This document shows, one piece after another, positions 1,708-50,922 of a DNA stretch of 64,000 bases. Below the pieces are notes generated by a model. That model ran no database searches and was not told where the DNA came from. It saw only the letters and a program-made list of their open reading frames with translations. Every line of letters starts with the position of its first letter. The first letter of the stretch is position 1. Origin of the DNA: Brevibacillus humidisoli (GTDB taxonomy: Bacteria > Bacillota > Bacilli > Brevibacillales > Brevibacillaceae). The stretch spans positions 2,003,970-2,067,969 of the forward strand of contig NZ_CP087263.1 of the NCBI RefSeq assembly GCF_020923435.1. The letters run 5' to 3'. The position numbers and the translations under genes are program-made.

Positions 1708-2722
1708 GCGCGATCCCTCCTGCTACCTCTCGAATCTGCTGTAATTTCCGGCTGACCTCGCCGCTGTCTACCAATTCTGCAGCCAGTGTTACTCCATCCG
1801 CAATCGAGTCCGCCCGATCAGTGAGATAGAGAATCGCCCCGGCATTGAGCAGTACGATGTCCCGGGCGGCACCGCTGTTCCCGGTAAAGATGCCCTCGAT
1901 AATCCTGGCGTTTTCCGCTGCATCCCCGCCCATCAACTGCTCACTGCGGAAACGTCCCAAACCAAACTGTTCCGGTGCGATTTCCAACTGTGTAATTTGA
2001 CCGTCCCGCAGTTCAACCACATCAGACTTTCCGGTTACGGTTAGTTCATCCAGTCCGTCTTGACCAGCCACGACCAAAGCGCGCTCGACGCCTAGCTCAC
2101 GCAGTACTTCAGCAACCGTCCGCAACAACGTCCGATCATAGATCCCCATCAACTGACGGCTGGCTCCAGCCGGATTCGTAAGCGGACCAAGCAGGTTGAA
2201 TACGGTACGAATGGCAAGCTCCCGGCGAGGACCGGCAGCGTGCTTCATCGCCTGATGGTATAACGGGGCGAACAAAAAGCAGAGATTGGTCTGTTTTAGA
2301 CAGGAAGCGGCTTCCTCCGGGGTGAGCGAGATTGGGATCTCCAACGCTTCCAGTACGTCGGCGCTGCCGCTTCTGCTAGATACAGCGCGATTGCCGTGCT
2401 TGGCGATTTTGACACCGCCGCTTGCCGCTACAATCGCCGCCGCCGTGGAGATATTAAACGTATGGCTGCCATCCCCTCCGGTACCACAGGTATCGACCAA
2501 CTCGTCAGCCTCAAGCGGCACAGCAGCCGCTCTTTCCCGCATCGCCTGGGCAAACCCGATAATTTCCTCCACTTGCTCTCCTTTTGCCCTCAGCGCTGCC
2601 AAAAAGGCCCCAATCTGGGCGTCTGTTGCTTTTCCATCCATGATCGCCCCCATTGCCTCACGAGCTGTGGCACGATCCAGATCTTCTTTGCGTATGATTT
2701 TCTCTAGTGCTGCTGTGATCAT
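1697..2722 (-). CDS. trpD: Anthranilate phosphoribosyltransferase
   Basis: Transfers phosphoribose from PRPP to anthranilate, the second step of the branch. The 341-residue protein carries the PRPP-binding DTCGTGGDGSHTFNIST motif (about 78-94), KHGNRAVSS (109-117), and the later GLDELTVTG loop. No glutamine amidotransferase domain is fused to it, and none lies beside it, so the TrpG partner of TrpE must come from elsewhere (in B. subtilis the amphibolic PabA does this). Overlaps trpE by 4 nt and trpC by 11 nt. Confidence 0.96.
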   Translation of the reverse strand: MITAALEKIIRKEDLDRATAREAMGAIMDGKATDAQIGAFLAALRAKGEQVEEIIGFAQAMRERAAAVPLEADELVDTCGTGGDGSHTFNISTAAAIVAASGGVKIAKHGNRAVSSRSGSADVLEALEIPISLTPEEAASCLKQTNLCFLFAPLYHQAMKHAAGPRRELAIRTVFNLLGPLTNPAGASRQLMGIYDRTLLRTVAEVLRELGVERALVVAGQDGLDELTVTGKSDVVELRDGQITQLEIAPEQFGLGRFRSEQLMGGDAAENARIIEGIFTGNSGAARDIVLLNAGAILYLTDRADSIADGVTLAAELVDSGEVSRKLQQIREVAGGIAHAS

Positions 2723-4236
2723 GCTTTCACCTCCGCTTGGGAAAACAGCTGCTCCGCCTTCTCCAGAGCTTGCATCAGAGCGGCTGCTTTGTTGATCGTC
2801 TCCCGATACTCCAGTTCAGGGACAGAATCAGCGACGATGCCTGCTCCTGCCTGGATATACGCCTGGTTCTCCTTAAACAAGATCGTGCGTATCGTGATAC
2901 AGCTGTCTAGATTGCCTGTGAAGCTGAGATAGCCGATTGCTCCGGCGTAAGTATGCCGGGCATCCGGCTCCAGCTCAGCAATGATCTCCATCGCCCGCAG
3001 CTTTGGCGCTCCTGAGACGGTACCAGCAGGAAACGCGGACAGCAGGGCGTCAAACGGATGAAGATCTGCTCGAAGCTGTCCTGATACGTGAGATACGAGG
3101 TGCATCACATGGGAGTACTGTTCGATCACCATTTGTTCATCGACGTTCACCGACCCATAAGATGACACCCGCCCGACATCATTGCGGCCTAGGTCGAGCA
3201 GCATGTAATGCTCTGCCCGTTCTTTCGGATCCGCGAGCAGCTCTTCTGCCATCGCGACATCCTCTTCTGCGGTAGCGCCTCGTTTGCGTGTTCCCGCGAT
3301 CGGCCGCATCTCTACTTTTCCATCCTCTACCCGAACCAACAGTTCAGGTGATGCCCCGACCAAGGTCTCATTTTCGTACTGGAGATAATACATGTACGGG
3401 GATGGGTTAAGCGTGCGAAGCACCCGGTATACGGCGAACGGATCTACTGTGGTTTCGACTGAGAAACGCTGCGACAGCACCACCTGAAAGATGTCTCCGG
3501 CAGCGATGTACTCTTTTGCCCGGCGAACGATCTCTTCGTACCGGGATCGCGGCATGTTCGGCACCATTTCCTGACGCGTCCGCCGCTCTGCGACATCCGC
3601 CTGTTTCCCTGTTTCCCTTGCCGGCAGATCACCTGCTGCCTGTGCAGCCAACTGCTGCAGTCGATCACACGCCTGATCGTATTTGCGGGCAATGAGGTCG
3701 GGCGTGTCGTCTTTGTCGATGTGCAGATTGACAATCAGTTGGATTTCCTGTTTGAGATGGTCAAATACCAGCAGCTCATCAACGAACAAAAAACGCAGAT
3801 CGGGCACCTGCAGATGTTCCTCGCGGTGTGCCGGAAGCTCTTCAAAATAGCGCAGCGTGTTGTAGCCGAAAAAACCAACTGCCCCACCTGTCAACCGCGG
3901 GAACTGAGGCAGACTTGGACTTTTGTAGCGATCCATGTACTCTCTGAGCTTCCAGACCGGATTGCCCTGGCACTGCTCACGCATGCCATCCCGTCCGTAA
4001 ATCGAGATCTGATCATCTTTTGCTTCGATTTTTAGAAACGGCCGCAGCCCAATAAACGAAAAGCGGGCCCAACGAGCGCCTCCTTCCACACTCTCCAGCA
4101 AAAAGGAATCGTCGCTGCGAAATTTCTGATAGAGCCGAATCGGGGTCTCCTGGTCGGCCAAAAGGGTCGTCCTGACAGGAATCAGCGTATACGACGGAGC
4201 AAGTCGTTGTACGTCCTCCAGGGAGGGTTGAAACAC
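2719..4236 (-). CDS. trpE: Anthranilate synthase component I
   Basis: Converts chorismate and ammonia to anthranilate, the committed step. The 505-residue protein has the N-terminal feedback region with LLESVEGG (about 46-53, tryptophan-binding LLES motif) and the chorismate-binding core: PSPYMYYLQ, GASPELLV, RPIAGTRKRG, GRNDVGRVS, AFPAGTVSGAPK and YAGAIGYLSF. The start codon is GTG at 4236, preceded by AGAGGTGA 6-7 nt upstream; no ATG fits. It is preceded by the TRAP site and terminator at 4281-4382, so transcription is likely attenuated by tryptophan-loaded MtrB. First gene of the trp segment, after its own promoter beyond aroH. Confidence 0.96.
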   Translation of the reverse strand: MFQPSLEDVQRLAPSYTLIPVRTTLLADQETPIRLYQKFRSDDSFLLESVEGGARWARFSFIGLRPFLKIEAKDDQISIYGRDGMREQCQGNPVWKLREYMDRYKSPSLPQFPRLTGGAVGFFGYNTLRYFEELPAHREEHLQVPDLRFLFVDELLVFDHLKQEIQLIVNLHIDKDDTPDLIARKYDQACDRLQQLAAQAAGDLPARETGKQADVAERRTRQEMVPNMPRSRYEEIVRRAKEYIAAGDIFQVVLSQRFSVETTVDPFAVYRVLRTLNPSPYMYYLQYENETLVGASPELLVRVEDGKVEMRPIAGTRKRGATAEEDVAMAEELLADPKERAEHYMLLDLGRNDVGRVSSYGSVNVDEQMVIEQYSHVMHLVSHVSGQLRADLHPFDALLSAFPAGTVSGAPKLRAMEIIAELEPDARHTYAGAIGYLSFTGNLDSCITIRTILFKENQAYIQAGAGIVADSVPELEYRETINKAAALMQALEKAEQLFSQAEVKA

Positions 4237-8906: not shown

Positions 8907-9872
8907 CTAGAAATTGCGCTCGATAATAAAATCGGCGATCTCCAACAACGAGCGTTTGGTTTTGTTGTCAGGAAGATCGCTCAAAGCTGTCCGGGCGCGA
9001 TTCAAATACCGCTGAGCCAGTGAACGGGCGTAGGCAATGCCTTCTCCTTCACGGATCAAGGCAATCGCTTCTTCTATATGCTCGTGGATAGCGTCCTGCT
9101 CCAGCCAGTCACGCAGGCGTCTCCTCTCCTGGCCGAACCACAAACTGTACAAGGCAGGCAGCGTAATATTGCCTTGACGCAAATCACTGCCGACCGGCTT
9201 GCCCAACTGCTTCTCGCTGGCCGTGAAATCGAGCAGGTCATCGGCGATCTGGAACGCCATCCCTACGTTGTATCCGTAGCGATACATCGAGCGAATCCGA
9301 TCTTCTGGCGCATTGCTGGCGATTGCTCCCAACTGACAGCTGATGGCGATCAGCAAGGCCGTTTTCCGCTTGATGCGTCGCAGGTAGTGCTTTAATCCCT
9401 GATCCCAGTTATTGAGATCGCGCACTTGTTCGATTTCGCCTTTGCACATCTCCACGATCGCTTTGGACAAGATCTGATGGATGCGTGGATTGGACAGTTT
9501 TGTGGCTATCGTAAGCGCACGCGCAAAGATGTAGTCTCCCGTATACATCGCAATCCGGTTGTCCCACTTTGCTTTTACCGTCTCACGGCCCCGCCGCTTG
9601 TCCGCATCGTCAATTACGTCATCGTGCACCAAGGTGGCCATGTGGATCAATTCCAGTGGCACAGCTACGTGCTTCAGCCGCTCAATATCGTATTCTCCCC
9701 ATTTTCCGCCCAGCAGGACAAAGACGGGACGTATTCGCTTTCCTCCCGCCTTTAACAGATGGGTAGAGGACTGATACAGTTCCCGGGTTCGCGTATCCAT
9801 CGATTGCTCCAGTGTCCGTTCGATGGATTCCACATCCCCCTTTAGTTGTACGTAAATATCTACGAGCTTCAT
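8907..9872 (-). CDS. hepT: Heptaprenyl diphosphate synthase component II
   Basis: Catalytic subunit that builds the C35 side chain of menaquinone-7 from farnesyl diphosphate and IPP, working with HepS. The start is placed at ATG 9872 (MKLVDIYVQLKGD), 5-6 nt after TTAGGGTGG; a GTG nine bases upstream is less likely. The 321-residue all-helical protein shows GGKRIRP, the first aspartate-rich motif HDDVIDDADKRRG and the second, IADDLLDFTASEKQLGKPVG. Its partner hepS lies at 12982-13815, separated by menG and the inserted ubiA-ubiX-mqnA block. Also called gerCC. Confidence 0.94.
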   Translation of the reverse strand: MKLVDIYVQLKGDVESIERTLEQSMDTRTRELYQSSTHLLKAGGKRIRPVFVLLGGKWGEYDIERLKHVAVPLELIHMATLVHDDVIDDADKRRGRETVKAKWDNRIAMYTGDYIFARALTIATKLSNPRIHQILSKAIVEMCKGEIEQVRDLNNWDQGLKHYLRRIKRKTALLIAISCQLGAIASNAPEDRIRSMYRYGYNVGMAFQIADDLLDFTASEKQLGKPVGSDLRQGNITLPALYSLWFGQERRRLRDWLEQDAIHEHIEEAIALIREGEGIAYARSLAQRYLNRARTALSDLPDNKTKRSLLEIADFIIERNF

Positions 9873-9882
9873 CCATTCCACC

Positions 9883-12257: not shown

Positions 12258-12977
12258 CTACTTTTTAATCCCAATATGCAGGGCGGCAACCCCGCCGAGA
12301 AACAGTTTTACTCTGACAGGGTCCAATCCGGCCTGTTGAAACATCGCCGCCAGTTCGCGGCTGTCGGGGAAGTGGGTCAACGACTGGGGCAGCCAGGCGT
12401 ACTCTTCATACTTGTTGACGAACCATTTGGCGATATGCGGCAGGATGTTATAAAAGTACAGGTAAAATAGCTGTCGATACGGGAGGAACGGTGGTTTTGA
12501 AACCTCCAGTGAAACGACTTGTCCCCCGGGTTTCACCACCCGCGCCATCTCGTTTAATACCGTCTGAATATCTGGCACATTTCGCAGGGCAAAGCCAATC
12601 GTAGCGTAATCAAACGTATTGTCTTCGTAAGGAAGCTGCATCGCGTCCGCATTGACCAGCGCAACGTTGTCCCCCAAGCCTTCCTTGGCTACCTTGTATG
12701 CTCCTACGTCCAGCATATTCTGACTGAAGTCCAGTCCGACCACACGCCCGGTCTTCCCAACGGCATGTGCCAACTGGATCGTCCAGTCTCCCGTGCCGCA
12801 TGCGACGTCAAGAGCAGCTTGTCCAGGCTGTACGCTCATCTGTTTCATCGTGTAGTTTCGCCATAGAACATGGCATCCAAAACTGATCACGTTGTTCATC
12901 CGATCATACTGGTCGGCGATACTCTCAAACACGGAATGGACGAACTCGGCTTTTTGGCGCATCTGTTGATTGTTCAC
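12258..12977 (-). CDS. menG: Demethylmenaquinone methyltransferase
   Basis: Adds the last methyl group from SAM to make menaquinone. The 239-residue class I methyltransferase shows HSVFESIADQYDRMNNVISFG at its N-terminus in the UbiE/MenG style, ALDVACGTGDWTIQLA (about 54-69, SAM site), VGLDFSQNMLDVG, FDYATIGFALRNVPD and the late PGGQVVSLEVSKP. It lies 4 nt after hepS. In B. subtilis menG (gerCB) sits directly between hepS and hepT; here three genes intervene. Confidence 0.95.
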   Translation of the reverse strand: MNNQQMRQKAEFVHSVFESIADQYDRMNNVISFGCHVLWRNYTMKQMSVQPGQAALDVACGTGDWTIQLAHAVGKTGRVVGLDFSQNMLDVGAYKVAKEGLGDNVALVNADAMQLPYEDNTFDYATIGFALRNVPDIQTVLNEMARVVKPGGQVVSLEVSKPPFLPYRQLFYLYFYNILPHIAKWFVNKYEEYAWLPQSLTHFPDSRELAAMFQQAGLDPVRVKLFLGGVAALHIGIKK

Positions 12978-12981
12978 GATG

Positions 12982-13815
12982 CTACAACTCCTCCACTACC
13001 CGCTTCAAGCGGTCCACGCGATGGGTGTAGCGGGAGGTCAACCATGTCAGCACATTTTGCTGTTCCGACGGATACAGGTTGCCGACCAACTTTTCACACA
13101 CCCCGATCAACTCCATCACTTTCTGTTCGATCGCGTCAATCACATGAGCGATCGTCGATCCGGGCTTTTGCAGCAAATACCGGGAAAAGCCAAATGGTAC
13201 CCGCTGTTCCCACTGCAGTTGTTCCCACTCTTCGATCACCTGTTCGACAGCAGATGTTTTTTCGATCAGTGTCTGCCAGAAGGTTCGTGTTTCCGCTGTC
13301 TGTGCATAATGCTCCACAAATCCCACGTACAGGGCAGTATCAATCGTTTTGCGAAGCGCTTGATACGACTTCCAGGGCAACTTGTTCTGCTGTTCCCCTA
13401 TGTACAGCTCCATTTTTGCTTCGTTGATCACTTCAACTGCATGTGCCAGTATCCGGATCGCTTCCAACTCGCCAGCTTCGGCGAGCAGATGGTAGTAGTA
13501 GCCGCTGCAGTAATCTCCGGCCAGGACAGACAGCTGGCGGTTGCGCTCTTCAGGCAGCGTGTCGTCGTACTGCAGCCTTACCAACTCATGGATGTCCAAA
13601 CCAAGTTGGATAAGCGCAGTGGTGACACAAAGCGTTTGCGCCCGCGATCTGGCAATCCCGTTTTCGCACAAGAAAAAGTACAGGAGAGCCAGGCGGTTTT
13701 CTGCAATCGGCGGCAAGTCGACATACCGCACGATATACGTGTTACCGATCAGTCGATGAACACGATCCGCGATTTCCCTGATGTCGTTCGTAAAAACGGT
13801 TGTGTCTTTGTACAT
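12982..13815 (-). CDS. hepS: Heptaprenyl diphosphate synthase component I
   Basis: Non-catalytic partner of HepT that sets the C35 chain length. This family is poorly conserved; the call rests on size (277 residues), the helical make-up, TRYTHRVDRLKRVVEEL at the C-terminus, a central SGYYYHLLAEAGELEAIRILA stretch, and its place immediately before menG. The ATG at 13815 follows GGAGGAAGCAT. It is preceded by a 170-nt leader whose arms can mask this ribosome-binding site (see 13819-13988). Also called gerCA. Confidence 0.88.
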   Translation of the reverse strand: MYKDTTVFTNDIREIADRVHRLIGNTYIVRYVDLPPIAENRLALLYFFLCENGIARSRAQTLCVTTALIQLGLDIHELVRLQYDDTLPEERNRQLSVLAGDYCSGYYYHLLAEAGELEAIRILAHAVEVINEAKMELYIGEQQNKLPWKSYQALRKTIDTALYVGFVEHYAQTAETRTFWQTLIEKTSAVEQVIEEWEQLQWEQRVPFGFSRYLLQKPGSTIAHVIDAIEQKVMELIGVCEKLVGNLYPSEQQNVLTWLTSRYTHRVDRLKRVVEEL

Positions 13816-13818
13816 ATG

Positions 13819-13988
13819 CTTCCTCCAATGGGAAAAGCCTCATTTCCAAGACTTTTCTTCAGAAGTACTCCCTGTTGTATAAGGAAGCTTGGGCCGATAG
13901 GTCTTCATCCCAAAGCGAAAAGGTTCTTTTGACTGATTGGGCAGCAAAGCTTCCTTATGAGAGCGAATTCGTCACCTCAAAGTCACCA
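13819..13988 (-). promoter_or_regulatory. Structured leader RNA upstream of hepS (candidate)
   Basis: On the minus strand ATAAGGAAGCTT (13947-13958) and AAGCTTCCTTAT (13879-13890) form a perfect 12-bp stem around 56 nt that contain smaller stems (CCCAA with TTGGG; AAAAG with CTTTT). The downstream arm's GCTTCCT is also complementary to AGGAAGC at 13818-13824, part of the hepS ribosome-binding site, giving two exclusive pairings. GAAAAG and CTTTTC make a further hairpin nearer the gene. A direct repeat GTCACC (plus strand, 13971-13987, 11-nt period) lies near the start of transcription. No known riboswitch class or T-box sequence was recognised. Confidence 0.5.
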
Positions 13989-13994
13989 TCCCCA

Positions 13995-14003
13995 AGTATA
14001 ACA
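13995..14003 (-). promoter_or_regulatory. Extended -10 promoter for the hepS operon
   Basis: Minus-strand TGTTATACT: a TATACT -10 (13995-14000) with TGn extension. No convincing -35. Transcription would begin about 13988 and give the hepS leader. Confidence 0.5.
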
Positions 14004-14013
14004 TATTTTCTGA

Positions 14014-14535
14014 TTATCGGCTAAGCCTCTCTTCATATCCTGTCTCCAATCGGATCAGAGAGGCCACGCCGTTGATGAGTTGCTGAGGATTCTCCATCTG
14101 CTCAGGGGGCGGAAAGTGAAAAACACCTGGGGGACGATCCAGTTGTATCGCCACCAACAGCTTCACCGAACGCTCCCCCTCCGTTTCCAGCAGGCGGAAG
14201 AACAGGTGGTCCACATTGCGGGTGAGTTGGAAGGAACGATAGAGGAGTGAGTAAACGTCGCCGTAGAGCAGGTGTTCTTCCAGTCGTTCGGACGGCGTGA
14301 CAGCAATATCCACATACAAGGAATCGTTCTGCCACTTTACATGCTTTATCTTATAATGAGTTGGTAGCATTGTAAATAAATCAACCAGATTTTGCTCGCT
14401 CAAGAACAGCGGCGTATACGGGCGATAAGCCGCGATCTCGCCGCCGCTGCCGCTCCGGGGCACCGTGGGGACTAGTGAAATAATGAAGGCAAGGCAAGTC
14501 GATACAGCAATCGCCGCTAACATGTTGCGGGGCAT
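14014..14535 (-). CDS. Unknown membrane-anchored protein
   Basis: Not recognised. Start chosen at ATG 14535 (MPRNMLAAIAVS), 7 nt after AGGAGG; an earlier ATG has no site. The 173-residue product has one N-terminal hydrophobic segment (about 4-24), then an extracytoplasmic domain that includes LYVDIAVTPSERLEEHLLYGDVYSLLYRSF split over strands and helices, and a proline-rich FHFPPPEQ stretch near 133. The pattern (NDSLYVDI, then VKLLVAIQLDR) resembles GerMN-like or sporulation/germination accessory domains only loosely. It sits between mtrB and the hepS promoter and is followed by neither a clear terminator nor an operon partner. Confidence 0.75.
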   Translation of the reverse strand: MPRNMLAAIAVSTCLAFIISLVPTVPRSGSGGEIAAYRPYTPLFLSEQNLVDLFTMLPTHYKIKHVKWQNDSLYVDIAVTPSERLEEHLLYGDVYSLLYRSFQLTRNVDHLFFRLLETEGERSVKLLVAIQLDRPPGVFHFPPPEQMENPQQLINGVASLIRLETGYEERLSR

Positions 14536-14564
14536 AGACAATCCTCCTCTCCTCACCATTTTAC

Positions 14565-14592
14565 AAATAAAAAAAGCAGGCTATGCCTGCTT
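14565..14592 (-). terminator. Intrinsic terminator after mtrB
   Basis: Minus-strand AAGCAGGC, loop ATA, GCCTGCTT (14574-14592), then TTTTTTATTT. Confidence 0.9.
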
Positions 14593-14600
14593 CTGCGGAA

Positions 14601-14852
14601 CTACTCTTCTGTTGTGTCGACAATGCCGTGCCGGGTCAGAATCTCCGCTTTTCCGCGCACCTTAATCGCTGAGGTGTGCTCGGTAAACTGGGCCAGCATC
14701 ACTTCACCCTTGTCCAGCTTTTCCGTATGGTGAAAGCGGGTATCCGTTCCGCGGGTCAATCCAATCACGTGGACACCGTTTTCCTTTGCCTTGATGACAA
14801 AAAAGTCCTGATGGTTATAAACGTTTGGAGACGCATCTTTTCGCTGATCCAA
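14601..14852 (-). CDS. mtrB: trp RNA-binding attenuation protein (TRAP)
   Basis: Senses tryptophan; the 11-mer ring binds (G/U)AG-repeat RNA and terminates trp transcription. The start codon is TTG at 14852, 5-6 nt after GGGGGAG, giving 83 residues, slightly longer at both ends than the 75-residue B. subtilis protein. Family blocks are intact: [20 protein letters not shown], the [20 protein letters not shown] stretch and KVRG, which supply the tryptophan pocket and the lysine-lysine-arginine RNA contacts. Its target, nine perfectly spaced triplets, is in this window at 4340-4382. In B. subtilis it is directly co-transcribed with folE (mtrA); here four features separate them and it has its own promoter and terminator. 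Confidence 0.97.
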
Positions 14853-14887
14853 CGTAGCTCCCCCTCTTGGCTTGATTCCTATCTATT

Positions 14888-14917
14888 ACTATCGCTTAGT
14901 TTGCCTGCTGATGTCAA
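14888..14917 (-). promoter_or_regulatory. Sigma-A promoter for mtrB
   Basis: TTGACA (14912-14917), 18-bp spacer, GATAGT (14888-14893) on the minus strand, about 35 nt before the mtrB start. It supports monocistronic expression of TRAP. Confidence 0.65.
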
Positions 14918-15602: not shown

Positions 15603-16013
15603 TTATATACCTGGGTGAGTTTTTTCATCACTGTCCTTATCGGAGTACTCGTATCTTCCTCCTTCCCAAACCATTCCTCGCACAGTAAGGGCCCAAGTTA
15701 TTCTATCTCCCTCCCGATCACTCTTTAAGGTTTGTGTGACAGGACTACTTGTTCCACTTTCTTCGTTAGACCCTACAAAATAAGCATCACTTGTGAAGTG
15801 AGTAACATTGACAAGCAACTGGTCTCCCGTATTGCTTCCAGACCCGTATACTTTTCCAGTACCGTTTGCGATATAATAGTCACTACCCTCCGAAAAACTG
15901 ATCGTGGCGTAGGCAGACACTCCGTCCCACGCCGCAGCTGGCAGGCTTGCCGAAAAGACAATCGTCGATGCAAGTAATGACATCCTTAATTTGGTCCACA
16001 ATTTCTGATGCAT
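15603..16013 (-). CDS. Unknown secreted protein, 136 residues
   Basis: Not recognised. Start placed at ATG 16013 (MHQKLWTKLRMSL) after GGAGGGGAGATTTCCT. A classic signal peptide ends near residue 28 (SLPAAA, then WDG). The mature 108 residues are rich in glycine, serine, threonine and aromatic residues in an alternating pattern (SAYATISFSEGSDYYIANG, TWALTVRGMVWEGGRYEY), as in a small beta-sandwich; it is acidic and has no cysteine. The end is DSDEKTHPGI. Bacteriocins of the lactococcin 972 type have a similar layout (signal peptide, W-rich small beta protein) but the motifs do not match. First gene of a two-gene unit with 14988-15551. Confidence 0.78.
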   Translation of the reverse strand: MHQKLWTKLRMSLLASTIVFSASLPAAAWDGVSAYATISFSEGSDYYIANGTGKVYGSGSNTGDQLLVNVTHFTSDAYFVGSNEESGTSSPVTQTLKSDREGDRITWALTVRGMVWEGGRYEYSDKDSDEKTHPGI

Positions 16014-47879: not shown

Positions 47880-48161
47880 AACGAACGACGATGATGAAGA
47901 TAAGCTGTTTCAAGGGAAACCCTCAGAGAGCCGGTGGTCGCTGCAAACCGGTGGTTCCCGAAACAGATGAGCCCTTCGGAGTTGCCAGACTGAACGGAAC
48001 AGTGTTCCCAGTAGGTTTGCTCGGTTGATCCGTTATCTCGCAGGTCTTTGACCTGACAAGGTTTCCTTCTGTGAAGAGGGAAGCAAATGAGGGTGGCACC
48101 ACGAAAGCAATGCCTCTCGTCCCTCACTACAGTGGTAGTGGGCGTACGGGAGGCTTTTTAT
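47880..48161 (+). promoter_or_regulatory. T-box riboswitch (probably serine tRNA) upstream of the aminotransferase and serA
   Basis: Canonical T-box sequence AGGGTGGCACCACG at 48090-48103. Stem I features: ATGATGAAGA (47890-47899), CTGTTTC pairing GAAACAG (47904-47910 with 47960-47966), CAGAGAGCCGG and the distal CCGGTGG region. Possible specifier AGC (Ser) lies in GATGAGCCC, near 47969-47971. A strong terminator stem GCCTCTCGT... to GGGAGGC and TTTTTATTTTTTT ends at 48161 and can compete with the T-box antiterminator. Downstream genes make serine, so tRNA-Ser sensing is inferred; the specifier was not proved. Confidence 0.9.
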
Positions 48162-48191: not shown

Positions 48192-49346
48192 ATGTTTCCA
48201 GACAAACAAATTTTGCGAATTCCGGGTCCAACCCCCATCCCGCCTCGTATTCAACAGGCGATGAACCGTCCGATGGTCGGACATCGCAGCGGTCAATTCT
48301 CCGCCCTGTTGGCAGATACGGCGAAACGACTGAAGCCCTTGTTCGGCACAGAGCAAGATGTCTACATCCTGACCGGAAGCGGCACCAGCGCCTTGGAAAT
48401 GGGTGTAGTCAATACCGTGCAACCCGGCGAAGAAGCTGCCGTACTAGTCAGCGGTGCTTTCGGAGACAGGTTCGCCAAAATCTGCGAACGGTATGGCATC
48501 ATTGTTCATCGCCTGGAGGTCGCTTGGGGTGATGCGGTTACTCCGGAGGCACTTGACACGTTCCTGGACAAACACCCGGGGGTCAAGGCAGTATTTGCCA
48601 CATACTGCGAAACGTCTACCGGCGTCCTCAATCCGATACGTGAACTGACGCAGGTGATCCGCAATAAAACAGAAGCGTTGTTTATCGTTGACGCTGTCAG
48701 CTGCCTGGGAGCCGTCCCTTGTGAGATGGACGAATGGGGTATTGACATCCTCGTCACCGGCTCCCAGAAAGCCCTGATGCTCCCAACCGGACTCGCTTTC
48801 CTGGCAGCCAGTGAGAGAGCCTGGCAGGTTATCGAAAACATGAAGCCGCTCGCCTTTTATCTGGATCTGAAGGCTTACCGCAAAAGTCTGGCTGACAAAA
48901 CCACGCCGTACACGCCAGCCGTCTCACTCGTGTACGGGCTTGCCGAAGCTTGCTCGATGATTGAAGAAGAAGGCTTGTCCAACGTTATCGAGCGACATGA
49001 GCGGATGCGGGACATGACCCGTGCAGCCATGCGTGCACTGGGGCTTCCATTGATGACTGAAGATGCTTACGCCTCCCCTACCGTCACCTCGATCGATCCG
49101 CAGGGCAGATTTGATGCGGAGGAACTGCGCAAGGTGCTTCGCACCCAACACAACCTGGTCGTGGCCGGCGGACAGCAGCATTTGAAGGGGAAAATCTTCC
49201 GAATCGGACACATGGGGTATTGCGAGCCTTTGGATGTAATCACGGTTGTTGCAGCCATTGAGATGGCTCTTCGTCAGATTGGATACGACGTGCCACTCGG
49301 TGCAGGCGTAAAAGCTGCTCAGGAGGTAATGATCAACCATGTATAA
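48192..49346 (+). CDS. Class V aminotransferase (serine/phosphoserine type)
   Basis: PLP transaminase of the serine-glyoxylate/alanine-glyoxylate family. The 384-residue protein has RIPGPTPIPPRIQQAMN at the N-terminus, YILTGSGTSALEMGV, AVFATYCETSTGVLNPI, FIVDAVSCLGAVPCEMDEWG and TGSQKALMLPTGLAFLA with the PLP lysine. ATG at 48192 follows GGAGGTAGAGAG. It overlaps serA by 8 nt and sits behind the T-box, so it very probably supplies the transamination step of phosphoserine synthesis (3-phosphohydroxypyruvate), replacing SerC; no serC is nearby. In enzymology it could also be serine-pyruvate transaminase. Confidence 0.87.
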   Translation: MFPDKQILRIPGPTPIPPRIQQAMNRPMVGHRSGQFSALLADTAKRLKPLFGTEQDVYILTGSGTSALEMGVVNTVQPGEEAAVLVSGAFGDRFAKICERYGIIVHRLEVAWGDAVTPEALDTFLDKHPGVKAVFATYCETSTGVLNPIRELTQVIRNKTEALFIVDAVSCLGAVPCEMDEWGIDILVTGSQKALMLPTGLAFLAASERAWQVIENMKPLAFYLDLKAYRKSLADKTTPYTPAVSLVYGLAEACSMIEEEGLSNVIERHERMRDMTRAAMRALGLPLMTEDAYASPTVTSIDPQGRFDAEELRKVLRTQHNLVVAGGQQHLKGKIFRIGHMGYCEPLDVITVVAAIEMALRQIGYDVPLGAGVKAAQEVMINHV

Positions 49347-50922
49347 AGTATTGATTAGCGATCCGTTAAGCGAACAAGGGATTCAGAAACTGCTGGATGC
49401 ACCTGACGTAGAAGTGGTAAGACAGACGAACCTCTCCCCCAGCGATCTGCTGGCAGTAATCGGCGAGTACGACGCACTGCTGGTGCGGAGCCAAACCCAG
49501 GTGACCGCCGAAGTGCTTGCCGCCGGCAAGCGGCTCAAGGCGGTCGGACGAGCCGGGGTTGGAGTGGACAATATCGACCTGGCAGCCGCAACCCAAGCAG
49601 GTATTGTCGTGATCAATGCACCGGATGGAAATACGATCTCTACAGCAGAACACTCCTTTGCCATGCTGATGGCGGTTGCTCGCAACATCCCGCAAGCCCA
49701 CAAGAAGCTGGTGGACGGAACGTGGGACCGCAAGAGCTTCCAGGGTGTCGAGCTGAACGGAAAAACGCTCGGTGTCATCGGGATGGGGCGGATCGGTTCG
49801 GAGGTTGCCAAGCGAGCCAAGGCATTTAACATGAAAGTGATTGGGTACGACCCCTTCTTGACGGATGAAAGGGCCCAAAAGCTGGGAGTGATCAACGGCT
49901 CCATCGACGACATTCTTCGTGAAGCCGACTTCATCACCGTACACACCCCGCTCATCAAAGAGACACACCATCTGATCAGCTCGGCTGAGTTTGCCAAGGC
50001 TAAAACCGGCCTCCGCATTGTCAACTGCGCTCGCGGCGGGATCATCGACGAGAAGGCGCTCTATGAAGCGATTCTCAGCGGCAAAGTCGCCGGTGCGGCC
50101 CTTGATGTGTATGAAGAAGAACCGCCCGTGGACAACCCGCTGATCGGTTTGCCGCAAGTGGTAACGACACCCCACCTAGGGGCATCTACGGTTGAAGCAC
50201 AGGAAAACGTAGCCATCGATGTCTCCGAAGAACTGCTGAAGGTACTTCGGGAACAGCCCTTTAAAAATGCGGTCAACCTCCCGTCTATACCTGCACACGT
50301 CATGGAACAGGTTCAGCCATACTTCGATCTCGGCGAAAAACTGGGCAGCTTTCTCGCTCAAGTGACGGTAGGTTCTCTGCAGGAAATTACGATTACGTAC
50401 AGTGGGGAACTGGCAGATGTGGATACTTCTCCGCTTACTCGAACAATATTAAAAGGAATCCTCGCATTCCGCCTGGGTGACGAGGTAAACTTCGTCAACG
50501 CCCCTCATCTGGCCAAAGTGCGCGAAATCAATGTAACCGAACAGAAATCATCGCAAAGCCGCGGGTTTACCAACTTGCTGACAGTGGCGATTACCACCAA
50601 TCTGGAAACGCGAATCGTGGCCGGAACCCGCCTGAACGGTTATGGCCCACGAATCGTAAAAATTGACAACTACACGATCGACCTGGCCCCTGAAGGACAA
50701 CTGCTCTATATCCACCACAATGACCGACCAGGGGTAATTGGACGGGTCGGGAGTATTCTCGGCTCCAACGAGGTTAACATCGCTACGATGCAGGTTGGCC
50801 GACGTGATGTAGGCGGAGATGCGATCATGGTTCTCACCGTTGACAAGGCGCTCTCTGCAGAATTATTGGATACGCTAGGAGAACTTGGTGAGATCACCAG
50901 TGTTACCCAGATCGAACTGTGA
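49339..50922 (+). CDS. serA: D-3-phosphoglycerate dehydrogenase
   Basis: First step of serine synthesis, oxidising 3-phosphoglycerate. The 527-residue long type has LLVRSQTQVTAEVL, GRAGVGVDNIDLAAATQAG, NTISTAEHSFAMLMAVARN, GVIGMGRIGSEVAKRAKAF (NAD site), NCARGGIIDEKALYEAIL (catalytic region), TPHLGAST, an intervening domain (about 320-445), then a C-terminal ACT domain (about 452-527; LLYIHHNDRPGVIGRVGSIL), the usual serine feedback site. ATG at 49339 overlaps the aminotransferase stop by 8 nt. Full length. Confidence 0.96.
   Translation: MYKVLISDPLSEQGIQKLLDAPDVEVVRQTNLSPSDLLAVIGEYDALLVRSQTQVTAEVLAAGKRLKAVGRAGVGVDNIDLAAATQAGIVVINAPDGNTISTAEHSFAMLMAVARNIPQAHKKLVDGTWDRKSFQGVELNGKTLGVIGMGRIGSEVAKRAKAFNMKVIGYDPFLTDERAQKLGVINGSIDDILREADFITVHTPLIKETHHLISSAEFAKAKTGLRIVNCARGGIIDEKALYEAILSGKVAGAALDVYEEEPPVDNPLIGLPQVVTTPHLGASTVEAQENVAIDVSEELLKVLREQPFKNAVNLPSIPAHVMEQVQPYFDLGEKLGSFLAQVTVGSLQEITITYSGELADVDTSPLTRTILKGILAFRLGDEVNFVNAPHLAKVREINVTEQKSSQSRGFTNLLTVAITTNLETRIVAGTRLNGYGPRIVKIDNYTIDLAPEGQLLYIHHNDRPGVIGRVGSILGSNEVNIATMQVGRRDVGGDAIMVLTVDKALSAELLDTLGELGEITSVTQIEL

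What the first reader, a model, noticed from the sequence alone, without database searches (positions are those of the whole stretch)
13818..14003. hepS leader RNA with two mutually exclusive pairings, one masking the ribosome-binding site
The minus-strand leader has a perfect 12-bp stem (13947-13958 with 13879-13890). The downstream arm contains GCTTCCT, which is also complementary to AGGAAGC at 13818-13824, that is, the hepS ribosome-binding region. The upstream arm and the ribosome-binding site share AGGAAGC, so they compete for the same partner. This is the layout of a translational switch. Smaller stems sit inside the main loop. If real it would regulate menaquinone side-chain synthesis by an unknown ligand, protein or temperature. 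Sequence complementarity is observed; switching is inferred.
Basis: partly seen in the sequence, partly recalled or inferred. Interest (0 to 1): 0.68.

Follow-up and report, generated by a model that had tools for sequence, protein, structure and literature searches.

The report
Two-way folding leader of hepS mRNA
The messenger RNA of hepS, a menaquinone side-chain gene of a Brevibacillus-type bacterium, begins with a stretch that can fold in two competing ways, one of which hides the ribosome-binding site; close relatives keep this, so it is probably a real but untested translation control of an otherwise familiar kind.

Summary
The perfect 12-bp inverted repeat is where stated. Its downstream arm holds GCTTCCT, complementary to the upstream arm and to AGGAAGC of the hepS Shine-Dalgarno (SD) region. 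Both complementarities survive in all 3 held genomes of the genus, although the loop has diverged (14 of 55 columns identical, against 9 of 9 for AGGAAGCTT). At E <= 0.001 the leader occurs only at hepS of these 3 among 39 family genomes; no Rfam family matches. An upstream promoter is found in 39 of 40 hepS upstream regions, so the leader is very probably transcribed. One leader of another genus (L031) has the same layout with other letters (0 of 1000 shuffles). Forced into either fold, the four leaders differ by 1.2 to 4.6 kcal/mol. Against: no two-sided compensatory change in the repeat; ordinary total folding energy; 35 of 39 scored leaders lack the design; the SD is predicted mostly paired in either fold. 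Best reading: a lineage-restricted SD-masking leader of unknown trigger. Switching is unproven.

The parts
13995..14024 (-). hepS promoter: TTAGCC (14024-14019), 18 nt, extended -10 TGTTATACT with TATACT at 14000-13995; start of transcription expected near 13989-13986
   Evidence: promoter of this form in 39 of 40 hepS upstream regions, with a pattern written after seeing them; the generic promoter scan did not list it. Start site not mapped
13979..13993 (-). segment 1: GGGGATGGTGACTTT, 5' end of the leader; its CTT(T) can pair with the first bases of segment 2 in the masked-SD fold
   Evidence: constrained folds of three congeners; alignment A2. Inferred
13947..13958 (-). segment 2: upstream arm ATAAGGAAGCTT, shares AGGAAGC with the SD region
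   Evidence: AGGAAGCTT identical in 3 of 3 congeners
13891..13946 (-). loop between the arms, 56 nt, not conserved
   Evidence: 14 of 55 alignment columns counted as loop identical in three congeners; these columns include two bases of the upstream arm
13879..13890 (-). segment 3: downstream arm AAGCTTCCTTAT, complementary to segment 2 and (GCTTCCT) to segment 4
   Evidence: GCTTCC and TTAT identical in 3 of 3 congeners, with one A to G in L004 and one extra T in L003
13861..13866 (-). ACTTCT, local partner of the SD in the predicted stem fold
   Evidence: identical in 3 of 3 congeners; predicted folds
13832..13857 (-). hairpin B, GAAAAGTCTT/GAGGCTTTTC, directly 5' of the SD
   Evidence: similar hairpins at the same place in genera g1, g2 and g5, two-sided changes at three pairs, rows matched by hand
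13818..13826 (-). segment 4: SD region GGAGGAAGC
12982..13815 (-). hepS (277 aa), heptaprenyl diphosphate synthase subunit 1
   Evidence: Pfam PF07307, E 3.2e-37; next to menG 12258-12977 and near hepT 8907-9881

Best explanation
The roughly 175-nt 5' leader of hepS is a cis-acting translational control element built from competing helices. In one fold segment 2 pairs with segment 3 (the 12-bp stem) and the SD is held only by a weak local helix that a ribosome may open. In the other, segment 3 pairs with segment 4 (SD), with hairpin B lying between them, while segment 1 pairs with the first bases of segment 2; translation of hepS is then blocked. Segments 2 and 3 are transcribed before the SD, so the stem should form first and the default should be 'on'; whatever holds segment 2 away would switch it off. 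Shown: the complementarities and their conservation in three congeners, the upstream promoter sequence, the comparable predicted energies. Inferred: both folds in the cell, the effect on translation, the order of events. Unknown: the trigger. A sensor in the 56-nt loop is unlikely because its sequence is not conserved.
For: Exact repeat and SD complementarity. AGGAAGCTT 9 of 9, and GCTTCC and TTAT identical, in 3 of 3 congeners, against 14 of 55 loop columns. 0 of 20000 column shuffles (62 of 20000 block shuffles) reproduce a shared 7-bp repeat. Double-use score 7 in the three congeners (4, 0 and 2 of 1000 shuffles reach it) and 8 in L031 (0 of 1000) with different letters; 3 of 339 other ORFs of the genome reach 7. 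Ensemble energy, stem fold minus masked fold, at 37 C: -4.6, +1.2 and -2.0 kcal/mol for L002, L003 and L004, -1.3 for L031. Minimum folds of growing transcripts (steps of 4 nt) contain the 2:3 stem in all four before the SD is made. Hairpin B has two-sided changes at three pairs. Promoter form in 39 of 40. At E <= 0.001 the leader lies only at hepS of the genus.
Against: Only three congeners are held, and no pair of the 12-bp stem shows a two-sided change. The SD GGAGGAAGC is also present in L005, whose 62-nt leader has no arms, so SD conservation is not by itself evidence for the 3:4 pairing. Leader folding energy is not unusual (z -1.41, 0.20, 0.14; L031 -1.52). In the window species the stem fold is favoured by 4.6 kcal/mol, so the masked fold would be rare without help; in L004 the minimum fold contains neither helix in full; in growing transcripts the masked fold appears only in L003 and, briefly, in L031, and the stem comes and goes in L003 and L004. 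The SD is predicted paired in all three congeners whichever fold wins (mean unpaired 0.05, 0.04, 0.15). L031 is one hit among 36 leaders outside the genus, and its genome is listed with 9% contamination. No transcript or translation data.
Confidence: 0.5

Rival explanations
1. Only the 12-bp stem and hairpin B matter, as static structures (transcript stability, an RNase barrier or a spacer for the ribosome); the match of segment 3 to the SD follows from purine-rich sequence and is not used.
For: The stem is favoured by 4.6 kcal/mol in the window species and appears first in growing transcripts. Conservation of the arms is explained by the stem alone. Hairpin B is the part with compensatory change.
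Against: The invariant core of the arms contains the 7 nt shared with the SD; in L003 the masked fold is the predicted minimum; L031 repeats the same logic with other letters.
Confidence: 0.27
2. Chance: a purine-rich segment repeated upstream, of no regulatory meaning.
For: 3 of 339 other SD-bearing ORFs of the genome score as high. 20 of the 23 other inverted repeats listed for the window are as long or longer. The bare pattern AGGAAGC-N30-60-GCTTCCTT occurs somewhere in 31 of 39 family genomes, and in the window genome the reversed control pattern is as frequent. Leader folding z-scores are ordinary.
Against: Arms kept in 3 of 3 congeners while the loop diverged to 14 of 55 columns; column shuffles 0 of 20000.
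Confidence: 0.13
3. Leader-peptide attenuation: a short ORF at the 5' end is translated and the ribosome's position decides which helices form, as in ermC-type leaders.
For: A start-like codon sits just after the expected transcription start in the congeners: ATGGTGACTTTGAGGTGA in the window, and ORFs from TTG (L003) and ATG (L004) that run over segment 2 (read by eye). The four-segment layout is like that of ermC (recalled).
Against: Read by eye, the ORFs are 5, 19 and 27 codons long without conserved length or end, have no SD, and one begins with TTG.
Confidence: 0.05
4. A DNA element: the arms are half-sites of a DNA-binding regulator downstream of the promoter.
For: Inverted arms near a conserved promoter; in two congeners each arm contains the palindrome AAGCTT.
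Against: The palindrome is lost in L004's downstream arm while RNA pairing is kept by G-U; in L031 the shared 8-mers of the two arms are only 2 nt apart; the pattern of the two arms has one place in the window genome, though its reversed control does too.
Confidence: 0.05

Closest known systems
ermC-type translational attenuators (recalled)
   Same: Four leader segments with 1:2 + 3:4 against 2:3, and the SD in segment 4
   Different: No conserved leader peptide with its own SD was seen; segment 1 pairs with only the first bases of segment 2; the controlled gene is a biosynthetic one
TRAP-controlled trpE leader of Bacillus (SD-blocking hairpin; recalled)
   Same: Bacillales leader in which a helix can hide the SD; the TRAP gene mtrB lies upstream at 14601-14852
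   Different: No run of (G/U)AG repeats in the hepS leader (longest run 1), so it is not a TRAP target by sequence
Translation-controlling riboswitches with anti-SD / anti-anti-SD platforms (recalled)
   Same: Same expression-platform logic
   Different: No Rfam match and no conserved aptamer-like core: the loop is not conserved
RNA thermometers (recalled)
   Same: SD paired in the predicted folds
   Different: Two competing folds rather than one melting helix; between 37 and 60 C the predicted balance moves by about 2 kcal/mol and not in the same direction in the three species

Membership tests
SD-masking leader with competing helices (general kind) | A segment complementary both to the SD region and to another leader segment | tested here: met
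SD-masking leader with competing helices (general kind) | Both pairings conserved in relatives | tested here: met
   met within the genus, 3 of 3, and in L031 with other letters; 35 of 39 scored leaders lack it
SD-masking leader with competing helices (general kind) | Compensatory changes in the competing helices | tested here: inconclusive
   only one-sided changes in the repeat; two-sided changes only in hairpin B
SD-masking leader with competing helices (general kind) | Measured change of translation between folds | not testable with these tools
   needs reporter and probing work
ermC-type translational attenuator | Conserved leader peptide with its own SD | tested here: not met
   5'-end ORFs of 5, 19 and 27 codons without SD, read by eye
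TRAP target leader | About 9-11 (G/U)AG repeats spaced by 2-3 nt (recalled) | tested here: not met
   longest run 1 in the window leader
Any Rfam 15 family (riboswitch, T-box, ribosomal-protein leader) | Covariance-model match at the gathering score | tested here: not met
   Searches (window; 15 hepS loci): none at hepS
RNA thermometer | SD helix that opens with rising temperature | tested here: inconclusive
   stem minus masked fold at 37/50/60 C: L002 -4.6/-3.4/-2.4, L003 1.2/0.0/-0.7, L004 -2.0/0.0/0.4; mean unpaired SD 0.15, 0.12, 0.19 at 50 C

The most novel reading that the evidence does not exclude
hepS leaders of this family are a fast-evolving set of competing-helix regulators that sense the menaquinone or isoprenoid state of the cell (by a protein or metabolite acting on segments 1-2 or hairpin B) and gate translation of a first enzyme of the menaquinone side chain; the pairing logic is kept while the letters are exchanged between genera.
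Probability: 0.13. Interest if true: 0.75.

Novelty: new member of a known kind. Interest (0 to 1): 0.45.

Why it matters
If it works, it would be a translational control point on the menaquinone side chain, for which two searches of the held literature listed no report of leader-RNA control. The leaders of three congeners and L031 give ready-made natural variants for testing how an SD-masking layout is kept while its sequence changes.

Tried and rejected
TRAP control: rejected, no (G/U)AG run. Known RNA family: none at the gathering score. Mobile or repeated element: no second copy of the leader at E <= 0.001 in 39 family genomes; below the three hepS leaders come short matches at E 0.003 or worse, one of them the SD end of the L005 hepS leader (25 nt, E 0.0052); the list is cut at its weak end. 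Terminator or attenuator: in 13700-14900 the scan lists one, after mtrB (14594-14572), none in the leader; it also lists one minus-strand promoter-like site inside the 175-aa ORF (14376-14348), within the number expected by chance. Consensus structure of 19 leaders of genus g7: 6 pairs, none with a two-sided change, so no structure shared by that genus was found. hepS upstream regions outside the family (32 loci, L041-L052 and L081-L100): no score of 6 or more in a rough automatic ORF scan, but hepS itself may have been skipped there when its start could not be called, so this is weak. Leader peptide: see rivals. A covariance model of the leader was not built.

Full report
Where it is. On the minus strand the window carries folE (17787-17224), then, after other ORFs and a tRNA, mtrB/TRAP (14852-14601), a 175-aa ORF without family match (14541-14014), the hepS leader, hepS (13815-12982), menG (12977-12258) and further on hepT (9881-8907). 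hepS is named by Pfam PF07307 (E 3.2e-37); NCBIfam gave it no name.

The observation. The inverted repeat is exact: 13947-13958 against 13879-13890, 12 of 12, 56 nt apart. On the minus strand AGGAAGC at 13824-13818 overlaps the SD and is complementary to GCTTCCT in the downstream arm. A score for this double use (longest k-mer of the SD-to-ATG stretch that is present upstream together with its reverse complement) is 7 for hepS. Other SD-bearing ORFs of the same genome reach 7 in 1 of 53 (window) and 2 of 286 cases (400 kb). The layout alone is therefore about a one-in-a-hundred event per gene.

Conservation. Three genomes of the genus are held. Their leaders align over about 180 nt. AGGAAGCTT is identical in 9 of 9 columns; in the downstream arm GCTTCC and TTAT are identical, with one A to G in L004 and one extra T in L003; the 18 columns around SD and ATG are identical in 17; the loop in 14 of 55, a count that includes two bases of the upstream arm. 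The changes in the arms are one-sided; those next to the core keep a G-U pair, some further out break it. Shuffling alignment columns never reproduced a shared 7-bp repeat (0 of 20000); shuffling blocks of 6 columns, which keeps parts of the arms intact, did in 62 of 20000. A 7-mer complementary to the SD region in all three arose in 2 and 1358 of 20000 respectively. A search of 39 family genomes with the leader finds it, at E <= 0.001, only at hepS of the three congeners (E 2.6e-92, 7.1e-29, 1.9e-16).

Other genera. Of 40 hepS upstream regions (39 genomes of the family plus B. migulae, L037), 39 match a promoter pattern (TTA[G/T][T/C]C, TTATTCC or TTTATCC, 13-20 nt, TAT[A/G]NT; written after reading the sequences; L058 is the exception). 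From the end of the -10 hexamer to the start codon the leaders printed are 44 to 195 nt long; those of L006 and L037 were misparsed there and are left out. I scored 39 of the 40 for double use (37; L006 and L037; L058 not scored). Score 7: the three congeners (4, 0 and 2 of 1000 shuffles). Score 8: L031, of genus g5, with AGGCTTCA instead of AGGAAGC (0 of 1000). The remaining 35 score 5 or less. In L031 the arms form a tight hairpin near the 5' end, and the same downstream arm can pair with the SD and the first two bases of the start codon. L014, of the same genus, scores 5 (271 of 1000 shuffles). With 36 leaders outside the genus scored, many of them near-identical, the L031 hit is suggestive, not proof; its genome is also listed with 9% contamination.

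Hairpin B. Directly upstream of the SD lies GAAAAGTCTT/GAGGCTTTTC in the congeners; L005 (g2), L031 and L014 (g5) have hairpins at about the same place. Listed pair by pair, the sixth pair is G-C or A-U, the seventh U-G, C-G or G-C, the eighth C-G or U-A; L014 lacks the two outer pairs and L003 the innermost. I matched the rows by hand by their distance to the SD; the automatic alignment sets L005 and L014 differently. This part has the compensatory changes that the 12-bp stem lacks.

Energies. With seven pairs enforced, the ensemble energy of the stem fold minus the masked fold at 37 C is -4.6 (L002), +1.2 (L003) and -2.0 (L004) kcal/mol; for L031, with eight pairs, -68.2 against -66.9. The folds are thus comparable in three leaders, while in the window's own the stem is clearly favoured. 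The unconstrained minimum is the stem fold in L002 and L031, the masked fold in L003, and in L004 neither helix in full but the stem fold on the slightly longer stretch. In minimum folds of growing transcripts, in steps of 4 nt, the stem appears in all four before the SD is made; the masked fold appears in L003 at the end and in L031 for one step; the stem comes and goes in L003 and L004. In the window's minimum fold the SD GGAGG is paired with CUUCUGA. Mean unpaired probability of GGAGG is 0.05, 0.04 and 0.15 in the congeners, 0.10 in L005 and 0.18 to 0.91 in the other 33 leaders computed: in this genus the SD is predicted to be held in either fold. Total leader energy is not lower than in shuffles (z -1.41, 0.20, 0.14); the first fold, on a slightly longer stretch, gave z -1.80.

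What it is not. No Rfam family matches the leader or 15 hepS loci at the gathering score. It has no TRAP-type repeats. The scan lists no terminator in it. The 5'-end ORFs are not conserved in length (by eye).

Literature. Searches for 'heptaprenyl diphosphate synthase' with 'leader RNA' (0 papers) and 'hepS', 'menaquinone', 'riboswitch' (5 papers) found no title on a hepS leader. Searches listed 1, 0 and 16 papers. Only listings with the starts of abstracts were seen; no paper was opened. The ermC, TRAP, riboswitch and thermometer comparisons are recalled.

Verdict. A conserved and very probably transcribed leader with two mutually exclusive pairings, most likely an SD-masking control element restricted to this genus with a possible analogue in a neighbouring one. 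The trigger and the switching itself remain open.

Noticed in passing
window 4382-4340 (-): Run of nine triplets (eight G/UAG, one AAG) spaced by exactly 2 nt, followed by a terminator-like hairpin with a T run, upstream of an ORF (2719-4236) that reads as anthranilate synthase component I (trpE, named from memory): looks like a TRAP target, with the TRAP gene mtrB in the same window.
   Followed up: partly
window 47882-48127 (+): T-box leader (Rfam RF00230, 102.8 bits) ahead of an aminotransferase-like ORF (48192-49346) and a SerA-like dehydrogenase ORF (49339-50922), the two named from memory.
   Followed up: no
window 14594-14572 (-): Terminator-like hairpin with a T run right after mtrB, which may separate mtrB from the 175-aa ORF and hepS.
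   Followed up: no
window 14014-14541 (-): 175-aa ORF between mtrB and hepS without NCBIfam or Pfam match; its end lies next to the hepS promoter.
   Followed up: no
L031, leader of hepS (G010): Same competing-helix logic with AGGCTTCA/TGAAGCCT; the downstream arm is also complementary to the A and T of the start codon.
   Followed up: partly
window 15603-16013 (-): Second ORF of the window with a double-use score of 7 (TTTCCTA); no Pfam match.
   Followed up: no
L005, leader of hepS (B. massiliensis): The ATG near the expected 5' end of the transcript is in frame with hepS across the SD, without a stop; read by eye.
   Followed up: no
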